A stretch of DNA of 23,008 nucleotides from a virus. The position numbers and the translations under genes are program-made. The stretch is taken from positions 1 to 23,008 of the IMG/VR virus record IMGVR_UViG_3300025759_000739. One strand, 5' to 3'. The stretch's first letter is position 1. Each line of letters opens with the position of its first letter. Positions 2,856 to 15,452 of the stretch are shown here, one piece after another. Below the pieces are notes generated by a model that was not told the origin of the DNA, did no database searches, and was given only the letters and a program-made list of their open reading frames with translations.

Positions 2856-3977
2856 ATGCCGATACCCACTAAAAATATCGACGAGACTAACGAGGAGTTC
2901 ATCGAGAGATGTATGGCTGATGATACTATGGTAGAGGAGTATGAAGATGACCAAAGGTTAGCAATCTGTTCTTTACAATTAGAAGAGGACAGAGCGTTAG
3001 AGGATATAAACACTAAGCCAACTCAAGAGATGGCTGACGAAGCTGCACAAGGCTTAGAATGGCGTGAGGAGTTTGGACGTGGTGGAACAGAGGTAGGCGT
3101 TGCAAGAGCAAGAGATATTAAGAACAGAGTAAACCTTAGTATTGAAACAATAAAAAGAATGTACTCTTATTTTAGTAGACACGAAGTAGACAAAGAGGGA
3201 CAAGGTTTTTATAGTGGAGATGAAGGTTATCCATCTGCTGGTCGAATAGCTTGGGCGTTATGGGGAGGAGATGTTGGCTTTGCTTGGACTAAAAGAAAGA
3301 TAGAAGAAATAGGTAAAGAAGAAAAATTTATAGATATGAAAAATAAAGAAATAAGAACAATTGACGTTCAAGACTTAGAGCTTAGAATGGACGGGGACAA
3401 TCCAGTAGTAGTAGGCTACGGTGCTGTATTTAATTCTATGTCTAATGACTTAGGAGGATTTAGAGAGTTCATAGGCTCAGAAGCTTTTGAAGGTCGTTTA
3501 GAAGATGACGTGAGATTTTTAATTAATCACGATGGTATGCCATTAGCTAGAACGACTAATGGAACACTAAGACTATCTGTTGATGAGAGAGGATTAAAGT
3601 ACGAAGCTAAATTAAATCCTAATGTATCAACTTCAAGAGATTTAATGGAGCTACTAAAAGACGGAACTATCAATCAATCTAGCTTTGCTTTTATTGTAGA
3701 GGATGACTCTTGGGAAATGAAAGACGGTATGAATGTTAGAACTATAAACAAAGTATCTAGACTTTATGACGTTTCTGCTGTAACTTATCCAGCTTACAAT
3801 GAGGCTAGTAGCTCTGTCGCTTTACGTTCTATGGAACAATGGCAAGAAAAAGAACAAGCTAAAAAACTAGAAGAAAGTTTAGAGGCTGAAAAATTAGAGG
3901 GCATAAAAGAAGAAGAAGATTTAAAGCAACGCTCCCTCAATGAAATGCGTTTAAAAATCTTGAAAAATAAATATTAA
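2856..3977 (+). CDS. HK97 prohead protease (peptidase U35) with two N-terminal accessory modules
   Basis: The maturation protease cleaves the capsid delta domain during head assembly. Three modules can be seen in its 373 residues. Residues 1-50 (EFIERCMADDTMVEEY and LAICSLQLEE) are a short acidic module seen in many phage head proteins. Residues 75-152 carry the RHEVDKEGQGFY and GYPSAGRIAWALWGGD segments of a known phage accessory module. Residues 165-325 are the U35 protease, with catalytic H225 in FLINHD and a serine in NQSSFAF (S275/S276). The tail from 326 to 373 is a charged, probably coiled-coil segment, possibly scaffold-like. Met161, just before the protease module, could be an internal start for a protease-only product; this is speculative. 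Confidence 0.92.
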   Translation: MPIPTKNIDETNEEFIERCMADDTMVEEYEDDQRLAICSLQLEEDRALEDINTKPTQEMADEAAQGLEWREEFGRGGTEVGVARARDIKNRVNLSIETIKRMYSYFSRHEVDKEGQGFYSGDEGYPSAGRIAWALWGGDVGFAWTKRKIEEIGKEEKFIDMKNKEIRTIDVQDLELRMDGDNPVVVGYGAVFNSMSNDLGGFREFIGSEAFEGRLEDDVRFLINHDGMPLARTTNGTLRLSVDERGLKYEAKLNPNVSTSRDLMELLKDGTINQSSFAFIVEDDSWEMKDGMNVRTINKVSRLYDVSAVTYPAYNEASSSVALRSMEQWQEKEQAKKLEESLEAEKLEGIKEEEDLKQRSLNEMRLKILKNKY

Positions 3978-5257: not shown

Positions 5258-5887
5258 ATGGAATACTATAACTACAACTTCAACACATTAAGAGGCTCTG
5301 ACTATGTGCCTTATGGTAAGTTAGTTCTAAAGACTGCTCCAACGTCTACGGTAATATCATTATCAGAGGCTAAAGCATTTTTAAGAATAGACTCAGACTA
5401 TGACGATGACAATACTTATATTACTTCTTTGATTAATGTTGCTACGCAAGTTGTAGAAGAGTTTACTAGACGTAGATTAATGACTCAGACGTACAATCTT
5501 TTTTACGATGAGTTTCCTCCTTACATTGATTTACAAGTAGGAGATGTTGCTAGTGTTACTCACATTAAGTATTACGATGCCGACAACACATTACAAACCT
5601 TAGCAGCATCTAATTACGATGTAGATACTAAGGTAAGACCAGGAAGGATATATGAATCGGAGGACGGAGACTTTCCAAACACTTACGAAAGACCAAACGC
5701 TGTAGAAGTTGAGTTTATAGTAGGTGGGACAGCGAGTGAAGTTCCAGCTCCAATAATTCAAGGAATTTACATCATTGTTGGTCGTTACTACGAAAATCGT
5801 CAGGACGTCGTAATGGGTACTCAAGTAAATGAATTACCTTTAATGGTAGACCACTTATTAACTCCTTACCGATTGCTTGAACTATGA
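5258..5887 (+). CDS. Head-tail connector protein (gp6-like / phiE125 gp8 family)
   Basis: This 209-residue protein probably forms the adaptor ring under the portal. Residues 34-45 (SLSEAKAFLRID) followed by DDDNTYITSLINVATQVVEE and FTRRRLMTQTY are the helical signature of the gp6/phiE125 gp8 connector family. The C-terminal half, with IQGIYIIVGRYYENR and LLTPYRLLEL, also fits. It follows the capsid gene, where HK97 gp6 sits. The ATG lies three bases after the terminator T-run, so its mRNA comes from read-through or an undetected start. The stop overlaps the next ATG by 4 bases. Confidence 0.88.
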   Translation: MEYYNYNFNTLRGSDYVPYGKLVLKTAPTSTVISLSEAKAFLRIDSDYDDDNTYITSLINVATQVVEEFTRRRLMTQTYNLFYDEFPPYIDLQVGDVASVTHIKYYDADNTLQTLAASNYDVDTKVRPGRIYESEDGDFPNTYERPNAVEVEFIVGGTASEVPAPIIQGIYIIVGRYYENRQDVVMGTQVNELPLMVDHLLTPYRLLEL

Positions 5888-7290
5888 TAATAGGCAAACT
5901 AGATAGAAAGTTAAAACTATATACACAGACTTACTCTACTAACGCTTATGGCGAGAGAGTAGTATCTGACAATAGTTACGTTACCATCTACGCAGACTTT
6001 GACTTCAAAGGTGGCAACACTAACTTCGATGCTGATGCCTTAATCAATGATGAGCGTATAGAGTGCCTAATAAGATATAGAACTAACATTGGAGTAAGTC
6101 CACAATATTTTATCTCTAATGGCTCTACTAATTATTCTATCAAGAGTATAAAGGAAGTAGGTCGTAAAGATGCTATGGTGCTTCTATTAGAGAAGAATGA
6201 CGTAGTAGACTTATCACAAACAGCTCCTAATCAATTTGTCTTTACTATTGACACAGAGAACACATCTAGTGGCTCTAGCTTAAATACTCAATTTATGATG
6301 CCATTGGTTAGTGGTGGTAGTTATAACGCTACAGTAAATTGGGGAGATGGCTCTAGCGATACAATAACAAGTTACAATCAACAAGAGGTTACACACACTT
6401 ATAGTAGTGCTGGTCAATACGAAATAAGCATAGAGGGAACATTACAAGGATGGCAATTCAATAACGCTGGAGATAAGCTCAAAATGCTTGACGTAAAACA
6501 ATGGGGAGTCTTAGACTTATCTACTTCTGCTGCTTTCTATGGTTGTACTAATTTAGATGCTAGTGCTACAGATGCTCCAACTATCTCTACTACTTCTTTT
6601 AATCAAATGTTTAGAGAATGTACTAACTTTGATGGAGCTATTGGCAACTGGGATATAAGTACAGTAAACAATATGAGTCAATGTTTTTATAATTCTACTA
6701 CATTTAATAAATCCTTAAATAGTTGGAATGTTAGTAATGTTACAAGTATGATAAGTGTTTTCTATGGTTGCACATCTTTTGACCAAGATTTAAACTCGTG
6801 GGACACTTCTAATGTTGAGCGTATGGACTATATGTTTTTTAACTGTTCACAATTCAACGGAGATATATATAGTTGGGACACTACTAACGTAGATAATATG
6901 AGTTATATGTTTTATGACTGCGACCTATTCGACCAATCTCTAGCAGCGTGGACTATTGCAAATGTCTCTAACTTTACTAACTTTATGCAGAACGCTAGTG
7001 GTCTAAGTACTTCTAACTACGATGCAACGCTAATAGCTTGGGAAGCTGGAGTACACGATAACGATATAAGTATAAACTTCGGTGGCTCACAATTTACAGA
7101 GTCTGCTTATGCTTCAAGATTTAGATTAATAGAGGATGATGGTTGGACTATTGTTGATGGTGGTATCTTTAACCCAACACCAGCCGATTACATAAGCGTA
7201 TTAAACACAAGAGTAGTAGCTGCTGGAGGAGTAGTAGAAAACACTACAGACAGCCAAGCATTCTTACAAACATTAAATGATATAAGCTAA
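5884..7290 (+). CDS. Head-tail adaptor fused to a DUF285 (BspA-like) repeat domain
   Basis: Residues 1-106 look like a complete phage head-tail joining protein (Phage_H_T_join/head closure): MIIGKLDRKLKLYTQ, AYGERVV, VTIYADFDFKGG, and IKSIKEVGRKDAMVLLLEK. This is the right size and place for HK97 gp7-like closure proteins, which normally end there. The ORF instead continues for about 360 residues. Residues 118-200 are a PKD-like beta segment (VNWGDGSSD, THTYSSAGQY). Residues 239-385 are about five and a half 25-residue DUF285 repeats of the type SW(D/N)xSNVxxM...MFxxCxxFxxxL. Residues 434-468 (ADYISVLNTRVVAAGG) are a short C-terminal motif. Reading is continuous, with no frameshift. I infer that the repeats project from the virion neck as a binding domain. 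A virion role is nearly certain; adhesion is inference. Confidence 0.88.
   Translation: MIIGKLDRKLKLYTQTYSTNAYGERVVSDNSYVTIYADFDFKGGNTNFDADALINDERIECLIRYRTNIGVSPQYFISNGSTNYSIKSIKEVGRKDAMVLLLEKNDVVDLSQTAPNQFVFTIDTENTSSGSSLNTQFMMPLVSGGSYNATVNWGDGSSDTITSYNQQEVTHTYSSAGQYEISIEGTLQGWQFNNAGDKLKMLDVKQWGVLDLSTSAAFYGCTNLDASATDAPTISTTSFNQMFRECTNFDGAIGNWDISTVNNMSQCFYNSTTFNKSLNSWNVSNVTSMISVFYGCTSFDQDLNSWDTSNVERMDYMFFNCSQFNGDIYSWDTTNVDNMSYMFYDCDLFDQSLAAWTIANVSNFTNFMQNASGLSTSNYDATLIAWEAGVHDNDISINFGGSQFTESAYASRFRLIEDDGWTIVDGGIFNPTPADYISVLNTRVVAAGGVVENTTDSQAFLQTLNDIS
6598..6993 (+). repeat. DUF285-type 25-residue coding repeats
   Basis: Five to six degenerate 75-base units encode the periodic pattern: MF/CF/VF, then C or N-S at +4, then a (T/S)F(N/D) step, then a W(D/N)-(I/V/T)-(S/T)-x-V-x-x-M step. 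Examples are NWDISTVNNM, SWNVSNVTSM, SWDTSNVERM and SWDTTNVDNM. The repeats are visible at protein level and are less conserved in DNA. Confidence 0.85.
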
Positions 7291-8273
7291 TGGCAGACGG
7301 ACTATTAAATAAAGCAAGTATAATCTTAACTCCTACTGGTTACAAGGCTGGTACGCTTTACAACGTAGCACCAATAGACGAGCCTTATGAAGACTTTGAC
7401 TTTGCTAGAACTTCAACTGCTACAAGAATTAACTCTAGTGGATTAGTTTCTAATGTAGCTACTGGAGTGCCAAGAATAAGTTATGATAGTAATGGAGATA
7501 ATGGTCATATATTGTTAGAGCCTACTACAACAAATTTATATTTAAATACTGATACACTATCTACACAAAATATAAGTACATCAGCTAGTGATTATTCTGT
7601 TTCATTTTATGGAACTGGAACAATTACATTTAGTGGTTCTTATAGTGGCAGTCTTGTAGGAACTGGATTAAATGACAGAGTATCTTTAACATTTACTGCT
7701 ACAAGTGGAACACTTACAAGTACAGTTAGTGGTAGTGTTACAAATGCACAAATAGAGAATTTAGGTTACTCCACTTCATATATGCCTAGCCTATCAACAC
7801 AAGGAGTAAGAGCTACAGAGACTGCAACTGGTGCTGGTAGTGCTGACTTAATAAACTCAACAGAGGGTGTGTTATATGCAGAGATAGCTGCTTTAGCTAA
7901 TGATGGAACTTTTAGAGAAATAAGTTTGAACGATGGTTCTACTAATAATGTAGTAGAAATAAGATATAAAAGCACAGCAAATCAATTTCAATTTATTGTA
8001 AGAAATGGTGGAGCTGCTGTTGTTTCTCCATCAATTATGCTTACAAATGCTTTAGAATTTATTAAAGTAGCTTTCAGCTATAAAACTGATGACTACAAAA
8101 TGTACGTAAATGGGGTTGAAGTAGCGACTGATACAAATGGCACTATGCCTAGTGGACTTAATAATTTATCTTTTGATTGGGGTGGCAGTAACCCTTTCTA
8201 CGGAAAATGCAAAGCACTAGCAGTATTTAATGAGGCTTTAAGTGATAGCGAACTAACACAACTAACAACGTAA
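7290..8273 (+). CDS. LamG / concanavalin A-like virion protein
   Basis: This 327-residue protein is probably a glycan-binding decoration or fibre protein. Residues 36-55 contain the FDFARTSTATRINSSGLVS motif, a recurrent hallmark of phage fibre and decoration proteins that carry lectin-like domains. Residues 75-175 are Ser/Thr/Gly-rich beta structure (ILLEPTTTNLYLN). Residues 185-327 look like a LamG/ConA jelly roll: EGVLYAEIA, FIKVAFSYKTDDYKMYVNGV, and GKCKALAVFNEALSDSELTQL at the end. It is translationally coupled (TAATG) to the adaptor-DUF285 gene and lies between two neck genes where HK97 has nothing. Ligand and virion location are inferred. Confidence 0.8.
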   Translation: MADGLLNKASIILTPTGYKAGTLYNVAPIDEPYEDFDFARTSTATRINSSGLVSNVATGVPRISYDSNGDNGHILLEPTTTNLYLNTDTLSTQNISTSASDYSVSFYGTGTITFSGSYSGSLVGTGLNDRVSLTFTATSGTLTSTVSGSVTNAQIENLGYSTSYMPSLSTQGVRATETATGAGSADLINSTEGVLYAEIAALANDGTFREISLNDGSTNNVVEIRYKSTANQFQFIVRNGGAAVVSPSIMLTNALEFIKVAFSYKTDDYKMYVNGVEVATDTNGTMPSGLNNLSFDWGGSNPFYGKCKALAVFNEALSDSELTQLTT

Positions 8274-8482
8274 TGAGTTTAAGATTAACAGAAATATGTT
8301 ACCCAGAGGTAAAGAGTTACTACATCGTATGGAACGATAGCGAGGCGATAGTATCGTATGGAGTACTAGAGACTTATCAATGCTTAGAGACTAAGTGGGA
8401 CAATGTAGACTTATATACTAAGGAAATAGATTGGATAAACATATTAATAGATAACGGTATTAACCCATTTCCAGAGCAATGA
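8273..8482 (+). CDS. Small hypothetical protein next to the LamG protein
   Basis: This 69-residue, Trp- and Tyr-rich acidic protein (ICYPEVKSYYIVWNDSEA, LETKWDNVDLYTKEIDWINIL) has no domain I recognise and no membrane segment. It starts at a TAATG junction with the LamG gene and its stop overlaps the next ATG by 4 bases, so it is almost certainly translated as part of the late operon. Its place suggests it belongs with the LamG/DUF285 pair, perhaps as a small assembly or cap protein, but nothing in its sequence proves this. Confidence 0.7.
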   Translation: MSLRLTEICYPEVKSYYIVWNDSEAIVSYGVLETYQCLETKWDNVDLYTKEIDWINILIDNGINPFPEQ

Positions 8483-10378: not shown

Positions 10379-10704
10379 CTTGGGATAAGTTAGAGGCTAT
10401 AGGTTATGGCTTCGGATTATTACCTAAAGACTTTTGGAGTTTGACTTTCCACGAGTTTCTCTGTATGCAGAAAGGCGTAAACGATAGAGTAGAGAAAGAA
10501 CAGCAATGGGAATGGGAACGAGTAAGATGGTTGGCTTGTGTTAATTTACAGCCACACACTAAGAAAGGACAAAACCTAACTCCTCAGAAGCTGATGAAGT
10601 TTGAATGGGAAAAGAAACAAGTTAAGACCGACATCAATAAACAAAAGAAAAGGGCAGAATATATAAAAAAGAAATACGAATTGTTAAACAAAGACAATGG
10701 CTGA
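10342..10704 (+). CDS. Frameshift extension of the tail assembly chaperone (gpT-like part of gpGT)
   Basis: After a -1 slip on GGGAAAC, translation continues in frame 1 for 120 codons to the TGA at 10702. This makes a fusion of about 224 residues (104 from the zero frame plus 120). The extension begins RQSHEESGKEEVTWDKLEA and includes GYGFGLLPKDFWSLTFHEF, a pattern typical of gpT-like tails, then a Trp- and Lys-rich C-terminus. The only in-frame starts are a TTG at 10441 and later internal codons; the conserved-looking sequence begins well upstream of both, so independent initiation is unlikely. The gene overlaps the tape measure start by 8 bases. Confidence 0.85.
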   Translation, partial: RQSHEESGKEEVTWDKLEAIGYGFGLLPKDFWSLTFHEFLCMQKGVNDRVEKEQQWEWERVRWLACVNLQPHTKKGQNLTPQKLMKFEWEKKQVKTDINKQKKRAEYIKKKYELLNKDNG

Positions 10705-12523
10705 GAAAACATTAAGCGTCAAATTATCATTAAACGATAAGCAGTTTCAAAGTGCTTTAAGAAAGTCTACTAATAGAATGAAGAAATTTGGAAAGTCTAT
10801 GCAAAGGACTGGACAAACTTTGAGTAGAAATTTAACTTTACCTATTGTAGCTTTTGGTGGTTTAGCAGTTAAAGCATTTGATGAACAAATAAAAGCTGAA
10901 ACTAAACTTAGAACAGCTTTAAAAGGTAATACAGAGGCTTTTGAAAATTTAACTGAACAAGCTAGAGAATTACAAAAAGTTACTTTGTTTGGCGATGAAG
11001 CTACTATAGAAGCACAATCTTTTTTGGCTCAGTTAGGATTAACAGAACAACAGATATTAATGATTACTCCAGCTTTGCAAGATTTTGCAACTGGTATGGG
11101 AGTAGATTTGAAAACAGCAGCTTCATTAGTAGGTAAAACAATAGGAACTAGTACTGATGCTCTAAAAAGATATTTTGATACTGGATTAAATCCAGCAATG
11201 ACAGCACAAGAAAAAGCTATAAAACTGACAGAGACATTAACTGAAAAATTTGGGGGTCAAGCTAAAGCAATAGCTACAGAAGGACTTGGACCATTACAGC
11301 AATTAAGCAATCAATTAGGAGATGTTAATGAACAACTAGGGGAAATTATTCTTGAAGGTATTGAGCCATTAAAAAACATATTACAAGTGTTTGCTGATAC
11401 TTTACAAGGTACATCTAAAGAAACTAAAGAAAGTGTAGTAGCTTTTGCTGGATTAGCTGCTATCATTGGTCCTATATTGTTTATTGTTGGTAAAATGATT
11501 ACAACATTTGCTAGACTTAGAAAGTTCTTTTTAGGTAGTTTAATTCCAGCTCTTAAAACATTAGGAAGGGCATTAGTTGCTTTGACTCCACAAGGTAAAA
11601 TTATAGCTGGAGTTATTTTAGCTGCTCAAGGTATTTATACCTATTGGGATGATTTAGTAACTGTCTTTGATAATGTTAAATCATCAGTTGAGAAATTATT
11701 AGAAAAATTAGGACTACTTAAAAAGGAAGAAGATATAGCTTTAGATTTTTCAATACAAGACCAGTCTGGTCAAGTATTTACTATTGAAGAACTAAGAAGA
11801 AGAACAGGAGCTTTTAAAGGAACAAAGATTGTGCCTAAGAAAAAGCCAGTACAAATGTCTCAAGAGGAGAGAGAAGGTAGAGCTAGAATGGCTAAACGTA
11901 AAGCTGAGGCTTTAGCATTACCAATAATAGAGCCAATAAAAGTTACTTCAGTTGCACTGAAAGAATTAAAAAATGATTTTGTTAATTTAGAACCTATTGT
12001 TCAAAACTTTGAGGAGAGTTTATCTGGTTTTGATATAGTAGGTAATGAACTTTCAAGAAGTTTTGAGTCTTTTGGCAATGTTTTACAAGGAACTTTTGCA
12101 CAAGCGTTGCAGAGTTCAGATGGTTTCTTTAAATCTTTTGTAGAAGGCTCTAAACGAGCTATGTCAGCATTGATGGCTCAATTAGCTGCAACATTAGCTC
12201 TAAATGCTTTGTTAGGTGGAAGTTATTTTGGAAAAATGCTAGGCTTAAGCGATATTGGTGGTGTTGGTGGTATAGGAACAGCTTTAAAAGGTTTATTTAT
12301 GGCTGATGGAGGTTTAGCTACTGGAGCAACTTTAGCTATGGTTGGAGAAGGTCCAGGAACATCAATGGCTAATCCAGAAGTCATTGCTCCATTAGATAAA
12401 CTAAAATCTATGATAGGAACGAACGGAGGCTCTACAGAAGTATTTGGTACAATAAGTGGAGCTGATATATTACTAAGCTCAGACAGAGCAAGAAAGAATA
12501 GAAATAGAACAAGAGGTTACTAA
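10697..12523 (+). CDS. Tape measure protein
   Basis: This 608-residue protein sets tail length. The N-terminus (TLSVKLSLNDKQFQSALRKS then MKKFGKSMQRTGQTLSRNL) is a typical tape measure start. Residues 60-240 are helical. Hydrophobic stretches at about 247-271 and 282-313 may insert in the host membrane during ejection. The C-terminus has the usual Gly-rich end followed by a conserved turn (MVGEGPGTSMANPEVIAPL, about 555-575). At roughly 0.15 nm per residue the tail would be near 90 nm; this is an estimate. No muralytic domain is visible. The ATG overlaps the chaperone extension by 8 bases and the stop couples to the next gene by TAATG. Confidence 0.93.
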   Translation: MAEKTLSVKLSLNDKQFQSALRKSTNRMKKFGKSMQRTGQTLSRNLTLPIVAFGGLAVKAFDEQIKAETKLRTALKGNTEAFENLTEQARELQKVTLFGDEATIEAQSFLAQLGLTEQQILMITPALQDFATGMGVDLKTAASLVGKTIGTSTDALKRYFDTGLNPAMTAQEKAIKLTETLTEKFGGQAKAIATEGLGPLQQLSNQLGDVNEQLGEIILEGIEPLKNILQVFADTLQGTSKETKESVVAFAGLAAIIGPILFIVGKMITTFARLRKFFLGSLIPALKTLGRALVALTPQGKIIAGVILAAQGIYTYWDDLVTVFDNVKSSVEKLLEKLGLLKKEEDIALDFSIQDQSGQVFTIEELRRRTGAFKGTKIVPKKKPVQMSQEEREGRARMAKRKAEALALPIIEPIKVTSVALKELKNDFVNLEPIVQNFEESLSGFDIVGNELSRSFESFGNVLQGTFAQALQSSDGFFKSFVEGSKRAMSALMAQLAATLALNALLGGSYFGKMLGLSDIGGVGGIGTALKGLFMADGGLATGATLAMVGEGPGTSMANPEVIAPLDKLKSMIGTNGGSTEVFGTISGADILLSSDRARKNRNRTRGY

Positions 12524-14664
12524 TGGCAATAGATACTAGATTAGTAGGAGAATTTCAAAGCGATAGAGGTACTTATTACAAAGTCTCTATAATTGACACA
12601 CAAAGCTCTACAGCTACTCAATATGATGTTGAGGTGGCTGGTAATGGTTTTGACTTAACATACCAAACAGACACAGACGATAGATTTACTGGTCTAATTC
12701 CATCAGAAGTCAAGTTTACTATGTTTGTCAATGACCCTAATAATAGTGCTAAACAAAGTATCTTAGACTCTATAAGAACTAGCGAATATAAAAGGTGGCA
12801 ATTAAAAATAGAATCTTCTACTAATGGAACTACATATAGTCTGTTTTGGGCTGGTAATCTATTAAACGAGATAAATCCAGAGGCTGACGAATCTTTGCCT
12901 AGACAATTTACACTTACTGCTATTTGTGGTCTAGCTGCTTTAGAAAATATACCATTCAATGAGGATGTAGCTTATGATTTTAATTTAGCTTACTCTTGTT
13001 ATCGTTATGTATTTAACGCTATAAACACAGACATTAACACAGATAACAACTGGGCAACAGATGACCGATTTATCAGAACTATGGTAGATTGGACTAATAC
13101 ACAAATACCTAGAAACAGCGCAACAGACCCACTAAACAACACTCGTTTTTTAGCTGCTTCTTACGCTCCAGTAGACAACAATGGAACAAGACAAGCAGAT
13201 ACAGCATTTAAACTGTTAAATCAAATATGCAAAGCCTTTGGAGCTAGATTGTTTTTAAGTGAGGGAATATGGTATTTTATACAAGTGAACACCTACGAAG
13301 AAATGGATAGTGCTGACCAATATTATAGAGACTATAAGAAAGGAAACAACGGAAGCACACACACTCCAGACTTTTATGGTTCTATAGACCTAAACACCTC
13401 AGAAGATGGCACAAACATAACTAGATTAGCTGGTAATAAGTTTGACTATTTAGGTATTTTGAAAGAAGCAACTTTAAACTACGAAATGTTTCAGAGTTAT
13501 GATTTACTACCTTTAACAGTCACTAACGCAAGTGGCACAAGTAACACGGTAAACAATTCTCTAGTAGCTTGGAACGGTTGGCACAGTACTGGTCTAGGAT
13601 TTAATACTGACTCTGGTATTTATGGAATAAATGACTTGAGCACCTCTGCTGATTATGCTTCTTACTATATGGGGGAGCTAGAGCTTTTAGATGGTCAGAC
13701 TATAAAAGTTACAAGAACATTCAACAGAGCAATAGATGCTACATATGCAAACTGGGGTTTTACTGATAATCAATCTATTTTATTTTATCATAGATTAAAA
13801 TTAGACGATGGTGCTGGAGATGTTCGATATGCTCGTTCTACTTATACTAATGGTGGTCTAGCACAATGGACTACTAATGATGTTTGGGGTAATGCTCCAA
13901 ATTACGCTGTGCCTTATTCAATTTTTGGAGATTCTGGTTTGTTTAATGCCACACCTATTAATGAGTTTATATTAAACTTTGAGACTGCTCAAGTTCCTAT
14001 TGGTGGAAATTTATATTTTGAATGCTATGCAAAAGTATATTATGACTATGGTAATAGTACAGACGTTGCTGAAGATGGTACAGAAATAACATCTGCAACA
14101 GACCAAGCTAAATTGTATATATACTCAGCTCCAGAAAGTTCTAACATACAGATTTTTCAATCATATATAGATGGGGAAAGTACATCGATTCAAAAGTTTG
14201 TAACCTCTCAGAATATCACTAATGGATTAACTTATGAGGTTGGAGACTTGCAGATTGGCTCTGGACCAACTGCTACAAATGTTGGTAGATTACAATGTTA
14301 TAACAATACCTCTTGGGATGATGGCACTAATATAACTTGGGAAGCCTACGGAGGTGGTAGTGGTAAAGCTATCTCTAAGCTGTTGCTTAGTGAGATAATG
14401 GCTGGACAAAATGAAGGAGCTAGAGTCTTTGATGGTGCTTTAAAAATATTGACTAATAATGTAAGCACTAACGGATACAAATTTCATAATGGAATTACTA
14501 TAGACAGTTCTTTATTTGTGCCTTATCAGACAACATTCATAGCTAATGAAGACACTTGGCAAGGCGAATGGTATGAGATTAACACTAATACCACAACTCT
14601 AACAGATTCAGTAGAGGCTGAAACTATAGACACTAACAACACAATAAACACTAATAGCTGGTAA
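12523..14664 (+). CDS. Large tail-tip / baseplate protein candidate
   Basis: This 713-residue protein follows the tape measure, where distal tail (Dit) and tail-associated (Tal) proteins lie. The N-terminal 150 residues (RLVGEFQSDRGTYYKVSIID, then YKRWQLKIESS and LFWAGNLLNEINPEADE) and the C-terminal part (ISKLLLSEIMAGQNEGARVF, then SLFVPYQTTFIANEDTWQGE with WYEI) resemble tail-hub proteins of Bacteroidota phages. Residues 320-540 look like an inserted beta-rich domain. I cannot assign a defined Pfam family by eye. With only one further tail gene downstream, this protein may combine Dit and Tal roles. No membrane segment or signal peptide is seen. Confidence 0.7.
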   Translation: MAIDTRLVGEFQSDRGTYYKVSIIDTQSSTATQYDVEVAGNGFDLTYQTDTDDRFTGLIPSEVKFTMFVNDPNNSAKQSILDSIRTSEYKRWQLKIESSTNGTTYSLFWAGNLLNEINPEADESLPRQFTLTAICGLAALENIPFNEDVAYDFNLAYSCYRYVFNAINTDINTDNNWATDDRFIRTMVDWTNTQIPRNSATDPLNNTRFLAASYAPVDNNGTRQADTAFKLLNQICKAFGARLFLSEGIWYFIQVNTYEEMDSADQYYRDYKKGNNGSTHTPDFYGSIDLNTSEDGTNITRLAGNKFDYLGILKEATLNYEMFQSYDLLPLTVTNASGTSNTVNNSLVAWNGWHSTGLGFNTDSGIYGINDLSTSADYASYYMGELELLDGQTIKVTRTFNRAIDATYANWGFTDNQSILFYHRLKLDDGAGDVRYARSTYTNGGLAQWTTNDVWGNAPNYAVPYSIFGDSGLFNATPINEFILNFETAQVPIGGNLYFECYAKVYYDYGNSTDVAEDGTEITSATDQAKLYIYSAPESSNIQIFQSYIDGESTSIQKFVTSQNITNGLTYEVGDLQIGSGPTATNVGRLQCYNNTSWDDGTNITWEAYGGGSGKAISKLLLSEIMAGQNEGARVFDGALKILTNNVSTNGYKFHNGITIDSSLFVPYQTTFIANEDTWQGEWYEINTNTTTLTDSVEAETIDTNNTINTNSW

Positions 14665-15452
14665 TGAGTTTACAAGGATACTTAAATAATCAAGTCTTAG
14701 CTACGGTTTCTGTTTCATCTACAACAGCTACTACTACTTTTTTACAGATATATAGTCCGACTATGTTAATGGCTACAAGTGGCGAAACAGTCAAGATTAT
14801 ACACAAAGGAACTGGTAGAGAATACAACGTGACTTTAACATCTGATTTAACTACCACCAGCACTAGGCTAGAGTTTAGCTCTACTACATTTGATACTATT
14901 ATACCAGAGGGAAGCATTGTAATACAATCTAACCTAGATAAATGGGACACTATATTTAGAGACTATACTATAGTAACTCATAAACTTTTTGAGGTAGGTA
15001 ATACTCACGCAAATACTAACCTAATCAATCCACAATATCCAACAGACATTTCAATTAATGCTGGTGCAGTTTGGGCTGATGGAGATACAATATCTAACGA
15101 GGCTACTGTTTTTAATATTTTTAGAAGTCCACACAATGGATGTAAAATAGAAAGAATTACTTGGGATGTTCAGACTGATTCTACTACTGGGCATAACGGA
15201 GTATTTGAGTTATGGCAGAAGAGGATAACAGAGAACGGAAATACTGCATCTCTAATATCATTAGTAGATAGTTTTGCATTTACTTCTCAAAACGATGTAA
15301 ACTATGTATTTAACAGAGATGTACAACTAACAAAAACACTTACTGATAGTGAATGTCTTATACCAGCTTTTAGAAAGACTGGAAGCACTTCTAGTAGTGA
15401 TAAATTTTATGCAACATTAACGCTATTAATTAGCACAGACCCACGACAATAA
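14664..15452 (+). CDS. Tail-tip or fibre protein candidate
   Basis: This 262-residue, Thr- and Ser-rich protein is dominated by predicted beta strands (VSVSSTTATTTFLQIYSP, VKIIHKGTGREYNVTL, VFNIFRSPHNGCKIERITW, KFYATLTLLIST). It is the last structural gene before the lysis genes, the usual place for a receptor-binding or tip protein. The C-terminal half (about 120-262) reads like a jelly-roll with a long ordered strand pattern. I recognise no named family. TAATG coupling at both ends shows it belongs to the tail operon. Confidence 0.65.
   Translation: MSLQGYLNNQVLATVSVSSTTATTTFLQIYSPTMLMATSGETVKIIHKGTGREYNVTLTSDLTTTSTRLEFSSTTFDTIIPEGSIVIQSNLDKWDTIFRDYTIVTHKLFEVGNTHANTNLINPQYPTDISINAGAVWADGDTISNEATVFNIFRSPHNGCKIERITWDVQTDSTTGHNGVFELWQKRITENGNTASLISLVDSFAFTSQNDVNYVFNRDVQLTKTLTDSECLIPAFRKTGSTSSSDKFYATLTLLISTDPRQ

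What the first reader, a model, noticed from the sequence alone, without database searches (positions are those of the whole stretch)
5884..7290. Head-tail adaptor fused to a DUF285 repeat domain
The sequence shows one uninterrupted frame with about 106 residues that look like a complete neck adaptor, then a PKD-like segment, five to six 25-residue DUF285 repeats and a short C-terminal motif. Adaptors of this family are normally about 100-120 residues. DUF285/BspA-type repeats are known from bacterial surface proteins and mycoplasma lipoproteins. I infer that each adaptor ring subunit displays a repeat arm, giving a collar of adhesins at the neck, or that a host-derived surface domain was captured.
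Basis: partly seen in the sequence, partly recalled or inferred. Interest (0 to 1): 0.75.

Follow-up and report, generated by a model that had tools for sequence, protein, structure and literature searches.

The report
Phage neck ring carrying variable LRR arms
In a large group of uncultured aquatic phages, the small protein that plugs the neck between head and tail has grown a leucine-rich-repeat arm whose exposed face differs from phage to phage while the plug itself hardly changes, so the neck probably carries an exchangeable crown of host-binding arms.

Summary
ORF 5884-7290 (468 aa) is one frame: a head-closure (stopper) domain (PF05521), a PKD domain, DUF285/PARCEL 25-residue repeats and a C-terminal helical hairpin. 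It is not a chimera: full-length homologues occur in 45 different IMG/VR samples. A 99%-identical allele (L080) and a second clade (L163, L168) encode only the plain 112-aa stopper followed directly by the next neck gene, so the arm is an optional cassette. Structure prediction makes residues 1-106 a stopper fold and the arm a TpLRR-like LRR. The arm diversifies at the same register positions of each repeat (dN/dS near 1.1) while the stopper is frozen (0.07). L035 and L039 share 100% of the nucleotides for residues 1-200 but 50% of those positions. The C-terminal hairpin occurs only together with a downstream gene that in 18 of 20 tested relatives carries a GTA head-spike-fibre domain. A 69-aa ORF always accompanies the arm.

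Best explanation: a neck-mounted accessory host-adhesion device, a hypervariable LRR arm on each stopper subunit plus a docking hairpin for exchangeable spike fibres. The fusion and its optional nature are shown; display, docking and host binding are inferred. No described stopper-LRR fusion was found. New variant of a known kind.

The parts
5884..6201 (+). Head-closure/stopper domain (Hc1, PF05521; SPP1 gp16, lambda gpFII type), residues 1-106; arm-less relatives end at residue 112
   Evidence: PF05521 30.1 bits; phrog_25 head closure Hc1; AF2 model of the domain alone, with the top VIA rows almost all neck/stopper chains, Z 8.7-6.3; dN/dS 0.07
6202..6483 (+). Linker and PKD-type Ig-like domain (residues 107-200; Pfam match 133-185)
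   Evidence: PF00801 above cut-off; AF2 strands, mean pLDDT mostly 63-90; dN/dS 0.12
6490..7008 (+). DUF285/PARCEL leucine-rich-repeat arm (residues 203-375; canonical 25-residue repeats at 247-371 = 6622-6996); hypervariable at repeat register 1, 17, 19, 20, 23, 24
   Evidence: PF03382 E 1e-44, TIGR02167; AF2 pLDDT mostly over 90; TpLRR 6mlx Z 13.8; register entropy rotation test P 0.0007
7009..7164 (+). C-terminal cap of the LRR arm (residues 376-427, helices 376-388 and 406-418)
   Evidence: AF2; end of the protein in the 429-436 aa versions without spike gene
7165..7287 (+). C-terminal helical hairpin (residues 428-468), candidate docking motif for the spike-fibre partner
   Evidence: Helices 433-446 and 455-466, pLDDT about 60; present in 40/40 loci with a downstream spike/LamG gene and 0/17 without
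7290..8273 (+). Spike-fibre-like partner protein (327 aa, C-terminal LamG domain; constant N-terminus); 18 of 20 tested relatives, not this copy, contain the GTA head-spike-fibre domain NF048003
   Evidence: PF13385 41 bits; NF048003 in relatives E 3e-24 to 1e-45 (nine; eight; one), window's own copy negative; diversity
8273..8482 (+). 69-aa ORF that accompanies every arm; function unknown, possibly an assembly helper
   Evidence: 56/56 arm-bearing loci, absent in arm-less L080 and not seen in L163 or L168; remote homologues beside DUF285 proteins in L077
5258..5887 (+). Context: head-tail adaptor Ad1 (gp6/gp15 type), overlaps the start of the stopper gene
   Evidence: PF05135, phrog_442, TIGR02215
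8479..8907 (+). Context: Neck1/HK97 gp10-type tail completion protein; in arm-less alleles it directly follows the 112-aa stopper
   Evidence: PF04883, TIGR01725; junction in L080

Best explanation
The gene encodes the neck stopper (head-closure ring protein) of a siphophage-like virus, extended at its C-terminus by a rigid arm: an Ig-like PKD spacer, a DUF285/PARCEL leucine-rich-repeat solenoid and, when a spike gene is present, a helical hairpin. Because the arm is in the same frame, every stopper subunit (six by analogy with known stoppers) would carry one, giving a collar of six arms at the neck. The exposed positions of the repeats act as a variable binding face for a host surface ligand, and the hairpin anchors the constant N-terminus of the product of the next gene, an exchangeable spike fibre/LamG lectin. 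The device is an accessory adhesin that helps the virion hold on to the cell surface or capsule before the tail tip engages. It is dispensable for assembly and is gained, lost and swapped as a cassette. Shown: the fusion, its domain content, its conservation, its natural absence, the selective pattern and the gene associations. Inferred: copy number, outward display, hairpin docking and host binding.
For: Fusion real and conserved in 45 samples. N-terminus is a stopper by profile, by gene order between Ad1 and Neck1 and by fold (T1, Pam3, SPP1 gp16, RcGTA, XM1, lambda gpFII, phage 812 stopper). Arm is an LRR by model (TpLRR Z 13.8). Optional: L080, 99% identical stopper, ends at residue 112 and is followed directly by Neck1, with clean junctions; L163 and L168 likewise. 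Nested position of L080 in the Ad1+Hc1 tree suggests recent loss. Frozen base, variable face: dN/dS 0.07 stopper, 0.12 PKD, 0.38 repeats, 1.05-1.55 at register 1, 17, 19, 20 with W10, F3 and F22 kept; register periodicity P 0.0007, and L035/L039 with 100% nt identity over residues 1-200 but 50% aa identity at 30 register sites. Hairpin and spike gene co-occur 40/40 versus 0/17. Spike partner has the GTA head-spike-fibre domain in 18 of 20 tested, a constant N-terminus (86.5% mean identity over the first 60 aa) and a diverse remainder. Precedent: RcGTA head spike fibre is anchored by its N-terminus, binds capsule and is not obligatory (PMC10218006); lactococcal neck passage structures carry carbohydrate-binding modules that bind host cells weakly and are non-essential in TP901-1 (PMC6669499).
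Against: No virion, isolate or host is known; no prophage or host hit in two genome scans. dN/dS at the exposed register is not significantly above 1 (1.13, P 0.12), so relaxed constraint is not formally excluded. The spike-fibre domain is missing from the window's own 327-aa partner, and NF048003 names a domain, not a location. Hairpin confidence is only about 60 pLDDT. Where the stopper C-terminus points in this phage was not modelled as a ring. Loci without spike gene are few lineages, so the 40/17 split is not 57 independent events.
Confidence: 0.62

Rival explanations
1. Neck reinforcement or assembly aid: the arm wraps the neck or touches the capsid and stabilises the virion, like the decoration proteins and the external stopper domain of phage 812 or the Ig-like domain of the R4C adaptor.
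For: Known neck-ring proteins carry extra external domains with proposed structural roles (PMC12886913, PMC10276861). The PKD part is as conserved as the stopper.
Against: Close relatives do without the arm; a structural contact should not vary at its exposed positions while stopper and PKD stay fixed; linkage to spike-fibre genes.
Confidence: 0.15
2. Broad adhesion: the arm binds polysaccharide, mucus or particle surfaces in general to raise encounter rate, without host specificity.
For: PKD, LamG and CBM_4_9 domains in the cassette are glycan-binding types; the relatives come from environmental metagenomes.
Against: A general glue does not need many diverged faces on nearly identical phages.
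Confidence: 0.14
3. Relaxed constraint: the arm is a captured passenger module that drifts.
For: dN/dS at exposed register is about 1, not clearly above.
Against: Repeat framework strictly kept (W10, F3, F22), length fixed at 468 aa in 48 of 58 closed proteins, perfect co-occurrence with partner genes.
Confidence: 0.06
4. Assembly chimera, or two products made by internal initiation or cleavage at about residue 110.
For: PF05521 proteins are normally 110-150 aa.
Against: Full-length in 45 samples; the only nearby methionines (138-139) are not conserved in other subgroups. Cleavage cannot be tested from sequence.
Confidence: 0.03

Closest known systems
Phage stopper/head-closure proteins (PF05521, SPP1 gp16, lambda gpFII, RcGTA g7, phage 812 gp97)
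   Same: Fold, profile and gene order; phage 812 stopper also has an extra external beta-sandwich domain (PMC12886913)
   Different: None read here has an LRR arm; usual length about 100-150 aa against 468
Lactococcal neck passage structure (936 group, TP901-1)
   Same: Optional collar at the neck with variable carbohydrate-binding ends and constant N-terminus (PMC6669499)
   Different: A separate BppU-like protein with coiled-coil fibres, not fused to the stopper and not LRR
RcGTA head spike and spike fibre (rcc01080, NF048003)
   Same: Partner gene in most relatives has this domain; spike fibre anchored by its N-terminus on a base protein, binds capsule, not obligatory (PMC10218006)
   Different: RcGTA spikes sit on capsid vertices; here the gene lies in the neck module and its presence tracks a stopper hairpin; the window's own copy lacks the domain
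DUF285/PARCEL (BspA-like, TIGR02167) repeat proteins
   Same: 25-residue repeat, LRR fold, variable hydrophilic residues, mobile module (PMC2996958)
   Different: Usually in bacterial surface lipoproteins or large phage proteins; here welded to a virion ring protein; no DNA dyad symmetry found
T4 whiskers (wac) and XM1 collar spikes (gp40)
   Same: Fibres or spikes displayed at the neck; XM1 spikes proposed for host sensing (PMC10491603)
   Different: Separate coiled-coil collar proteins

Membership tests
Phage stopper/head closure (PF05521, SPP1 gp16 type) | Profile match above curated cut-off | tested here: met
   30.1 bits vs 25 on residues 1-98
Phage stopper/head closure (PF05521, SPP1 gp16 type) | Stopper beta-barrel fold | tested here: met
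   AF2 of the domain; top VIA rows almost all neck/stopper chains, best Z 8.7 (9lbn_J, 95 residues, rmsd 3.3; 8hdr_A, 87 residues, rmsd 2.7) against 6.3 and below for unrelated folds apart from one 88-residue chain at 7.5; Foldseek E 2e-3 at best; model pLDDT 72.6
Phage stopper/head closure (PF05521, SPP1 gp16 type) | Gene order adaptor - stopper - Neck1/gp10 - terminator | tested here: met
   PF05135, PF05521, PF04883, PF11367 in order, with the cassette between stopper and Neck1
Phage stopper/head closure (PF05521, SPP1 gp16 type) | Single domain of roughly 100-150 aa | tested here: not met
   468 aa here; 113-154 aa in cultured flavophages, 112 aa in L080, L163, L168. The stopper domain itself is of normal size; the extension is the novelty.
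Phage stopper/head closure (PF05521, SPP1 gp16 type) | Hexameric ring with gating loop | not testable with these tools
   No complex prediction or virion data
DUF285/PARCEL repeat (PF03382, TIGR02167) | Profile above cut-off and 25-residue tandem period | tested here: met
   151 bits and 34.1 bits; W spacing 25 at 256, 281, 306, 331, 356
DUF285/PARCEL repeat (PF03382, TIGR02167) | LRR solenoid fold | tested here: met
   TpLRR 6mlx Z 13.8, rmsd 4.1, 208 aligned residues; repeats and solenoids score high easily, but the sequence families agree
DUF285/PARCEL repeat (PF03382, TIGR02167) | Dyad symmetry of the coding DNA | tested here: not met
   Inverted 7-10-mers no more than in codon shuffles (P 0.72-1.0); the original work used MEME palindromes, so a weaker signal is possible
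GTA head-spike-fibre domain (NF048003), partner gene | Profile above 36 bits in relatives of the partner | tested here: met
   18 of 20 distinct relatives of the partner; this row is for the relatives, not the window's copy
GTA head-spike-fibre domain (NF048003), partner gene | Profile above 36 bits in the window's own 7290-8273 | tested here: not met
   No match to NF048003 up to E 10
GTA head-spike-fibre domain (NF048003), partner gene | Location on capsid vertices | not testable with these tools
   Needs virion structure
Lactococcal neck passage structure | Separate collar protein with BppU-like N-terminal ring domain | tested here: not met
   The ring domain is PF05521 and the arm is fused to it
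Diversity-generating retroelement target | Adenine-restricted variation and a reverse transcriptase nearby | tested here: not met
   All three codon positions vary with all bases at hypervariable sites; no reverse transcriptase recognised in the part of the 23-kb record that was scanned, record may be incomplete

The most novel reading that the evidence does not exclude
A tail-independent variable receptor system at the phage neck: stopper-fused LRR arms whose exposed face is diversified much as in LRR-based immune receptors, each ending in a socket (hairpin) into which exchangeable spike fibres dock, so that host recognition is partly moved from tail tip to neck and evolves by cassette exchange.
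Probability: 0.3. Interest if true: 0.82.

Novelty: new variant of a known kind. Interest (0 to 1): 0.62.

Why it matters
Neck collars and head spikes are known to help adsorption in a few phages, but they are separate proteins. Here the adhesin is welded to a core ring protein, its natural presence and absence on near-identical backbones gives a ready-made comparison, and a frozen base with a hypervariable LRR face makes the open question of what neck appendages bind directly testable. It would also explain what a common unassigned repeat (DUF285/PARCEL) does in at least one phage setting.

Tried and rejected
Assembly chimera: rejected. Diversity-generating retroelement: codon pattern does not fit. 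Significant positive selection: not reached (P 0.12). Other empty alleles like L080 by junction pattern: none in viral contigs. Host or prophage: stopper profile and TerL scans of genome contigs found nothing. Cultured relative of the stopper by tblastn: none at E 0.1, only chance-level matches at E up to 10, which nevertheless include annotated head-tail adaptors and Hc1 of Psychrobacter phage Psymv2. phrog_10356 (852 positions, 'virion structural protein') matches the stopper N-terminus, so another phage family may also have a long stopper; its members were not found in eight flavobacterial phages and nothing rang in the controls, so this is inconclusive. PARCEL dyad symmetry: absent. Sequence search of solved structures: no relatives of stopper or arm. 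The first Foldseek run on the whole model gave weak E-values for the stopper part because that part had low confidence; repeated with the domain alone. Nonlabens phage P12024 shares only the partner's N-terminal motif, not the stopper arrangement. Internal start at Met138/139: not conserved in other subgroups.

Full report
Observation. The 468-aa frame at 5884-7290 is intact. Pfam gives Phage_HCP on residues 1-98, PKD on 133-185 and DUF285 in the repeats, all over their cut-offs; NCBIfam adds the PARCEL repeat TIGR02167. The window is a virus record of 23,008 bases, probably a fragment, with a standard siphophage order: terminase, portal, protease, capsid, adaptor, stopper, cassette, Neck1/gp10, terminator, tail tube, tape measure, tail proteins (the terminase, portal and capsid names rest and gene order).

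It is not a chimera. A scan of IMG/VR returned 79 loci. I counted 45 different sample identifiers with the full-length fusion. Of 58 closed proteins, 48 have exactly 468 residues. Profiles of the stopper domain alone found the same fusion in more divergent relatives.

The arm is optional. In L080 the stopper is 99% identical over 112 residues but stops there, and the next gene starts at once; the joint reads GACTTA|GAGCAATGATAG against GACTTA|TCACAAACA at the left and CCATTTCCA|GAGCAATGATAG at the right end of the cassette in the window. L163 and L168 are a second group with a plain 112-aa stopper (66-68% identical) followed directly by Neck1, although portal and adaptor are 84-95% identical to the window's. 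On a tree of adaptor plus stopper DNA, L080 lies inside the arm-bearing phages, which suggests recent loss. The arm is thus not needed to build a virion.

The cassette has rules. Among 57 distinct loci spanning stopper to Neck1, 40 have arm, C-terminal hairpin, spike/LamG gene(s) and 69-aa ORF; 16 have arm and 69-aa ORF but neither hairpin nor spike gene; one (L080) has none. Hairpin and spike gene never occur apart. The partner proteins have a constant start (first 60 aa, 86.5% mean identity) and a diverse remainder (median identity times coverage 31%), with lengths of 326-800 aa. In 18 of 20 tested, NCBIfam finds the GTA head-spike-fibre domain NF048003 with E 6e-24 to 1e-45 (one at 4e-22); the two without it are L040, which has a weak CBM_4_9 match, and the window's own short copy, which has only LamG. 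In contig L077, which shows no stopper match, DUF285 repeats, a similar helical motif and a LamG-like end lie in this order in one 872-aa protein, the same order as in the window across two genes; the LamG-like reading of that end is mine.

Fold. AF2 of the whole protein gives a confident arm and an uncertain stopper. The arm matches the Treponema LRR protein TpLRR best (Z 13.8, 208 residues, rmsd 4.1) and other LRR proteins next, including a hagfish variable lymphocyte receptor (Z 12.3). The stopper domain folded alone (mean pLDDT 72.6) matches T1, Pam3, FCWL1, SPP1 gp16, RcGTA, XM1, lambda and phage 812 stopper or neck chains; Foldseek E-values are modest (2e-3 at best) but nearly all leading rows are neck proteins.

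Selection. Over 40 distinct genes, pN/pS is 0.11 in the stopper, 0.10 in linker plus PKD, and 0.47 and 0.29 in the two parts of the repeats. A parsimony count gives dN/dS 0.07, 0.12 and 0.38 for stopper, PKD and repeats, with 1.05-1.55 at repeat positions 1, 17, 19 and 20 and near zero at F3, W10 and F22. The register pattern is not chance (rotation P 0.0007). The pooled exposed positions are at 1.13, not significantly above 1 (P 0.12), so I claim a variable face on a kept scaffold, not proven positive selection. L035 and L039 are identical over 600 nt (stopper plus PKD) but share only half of 30 register residues, as expected if arm alleles are exchanged. Codon changes at all three positions speak against a diversity-generating retroelement.

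Mechanism. By analogy with known stoppers, which form hexamers (PMC10721106, PMC12886913), six arms would project at the neck. The closest functional precedents are the lactococcal neck passage structure, whose carbohydrate-binding modules bind host cells and which is non-essential in TP901-1 (PMC6669499), and the RcGTA head spike fibre, which is anchored by its N-terminus, binds capsule and is not obligatory (PMC10218006). I infer the same job here: first hold on the cell, then tail engagement. Extra external domains on stopper or adaptor proteins are known (phage 812; R4C), so the kind is known; an LRR arm with a hypervariable face on the stopper was not found in the papers searched, which cover open-access literature only.

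Limits. No host, isolate or virion is known. Docking of the spike partner on the hairpin rests on co-occurrence alone. Some co-occurrence counts reflect shared ancestry. phrog_10356 hints that another phage family has a long stopper, which would lower novelty.

Noticed in passing
window 8273-8482; L077 7680-7901 and 9728-10072: A 69-aa ORF with no family match accompanies every arm; remote homologues sit right after DUF285 proteins in L077, which shows no stopper match, suggesting a small partner or chaperone of DUF285 appendages.
   Followed up: partly
window 10697-12523: The tape measure gene is only about 45% identical (median) among relatives whose flanking genes are about 79-96% identical, with length variants of about 608-768 aa.
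   Followed up: no
window 12523-14664 and 14664-15452: The 713-aa and 262-aa genes after the tape measure, probably the tail tip, have no convincing Pfam or PHROG match.
   Followed up: partly
L163 890-2665, L168 411-2303, window 2856-3977: The gene between portal and capsid varies from about 328 to 630 aa between close relatives.
   Followed up: no
L110, L111, L113 at about 7505-8035; L102 5330-5809: The Neck1/gp10 gene has alternative N-termini (such as MATVFTEKNLRGNQGGHQG or MAIGTTKILRGNQGGHSG) in some relatives, a further exchange point beside the cassette.
   Followed up: no
L072 start of locus: An in-frame stop lies near the contig edge inside the arm (open stretch of only 8 residues before it); sequencing error or broken copy not resolved.
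   Followed up: no
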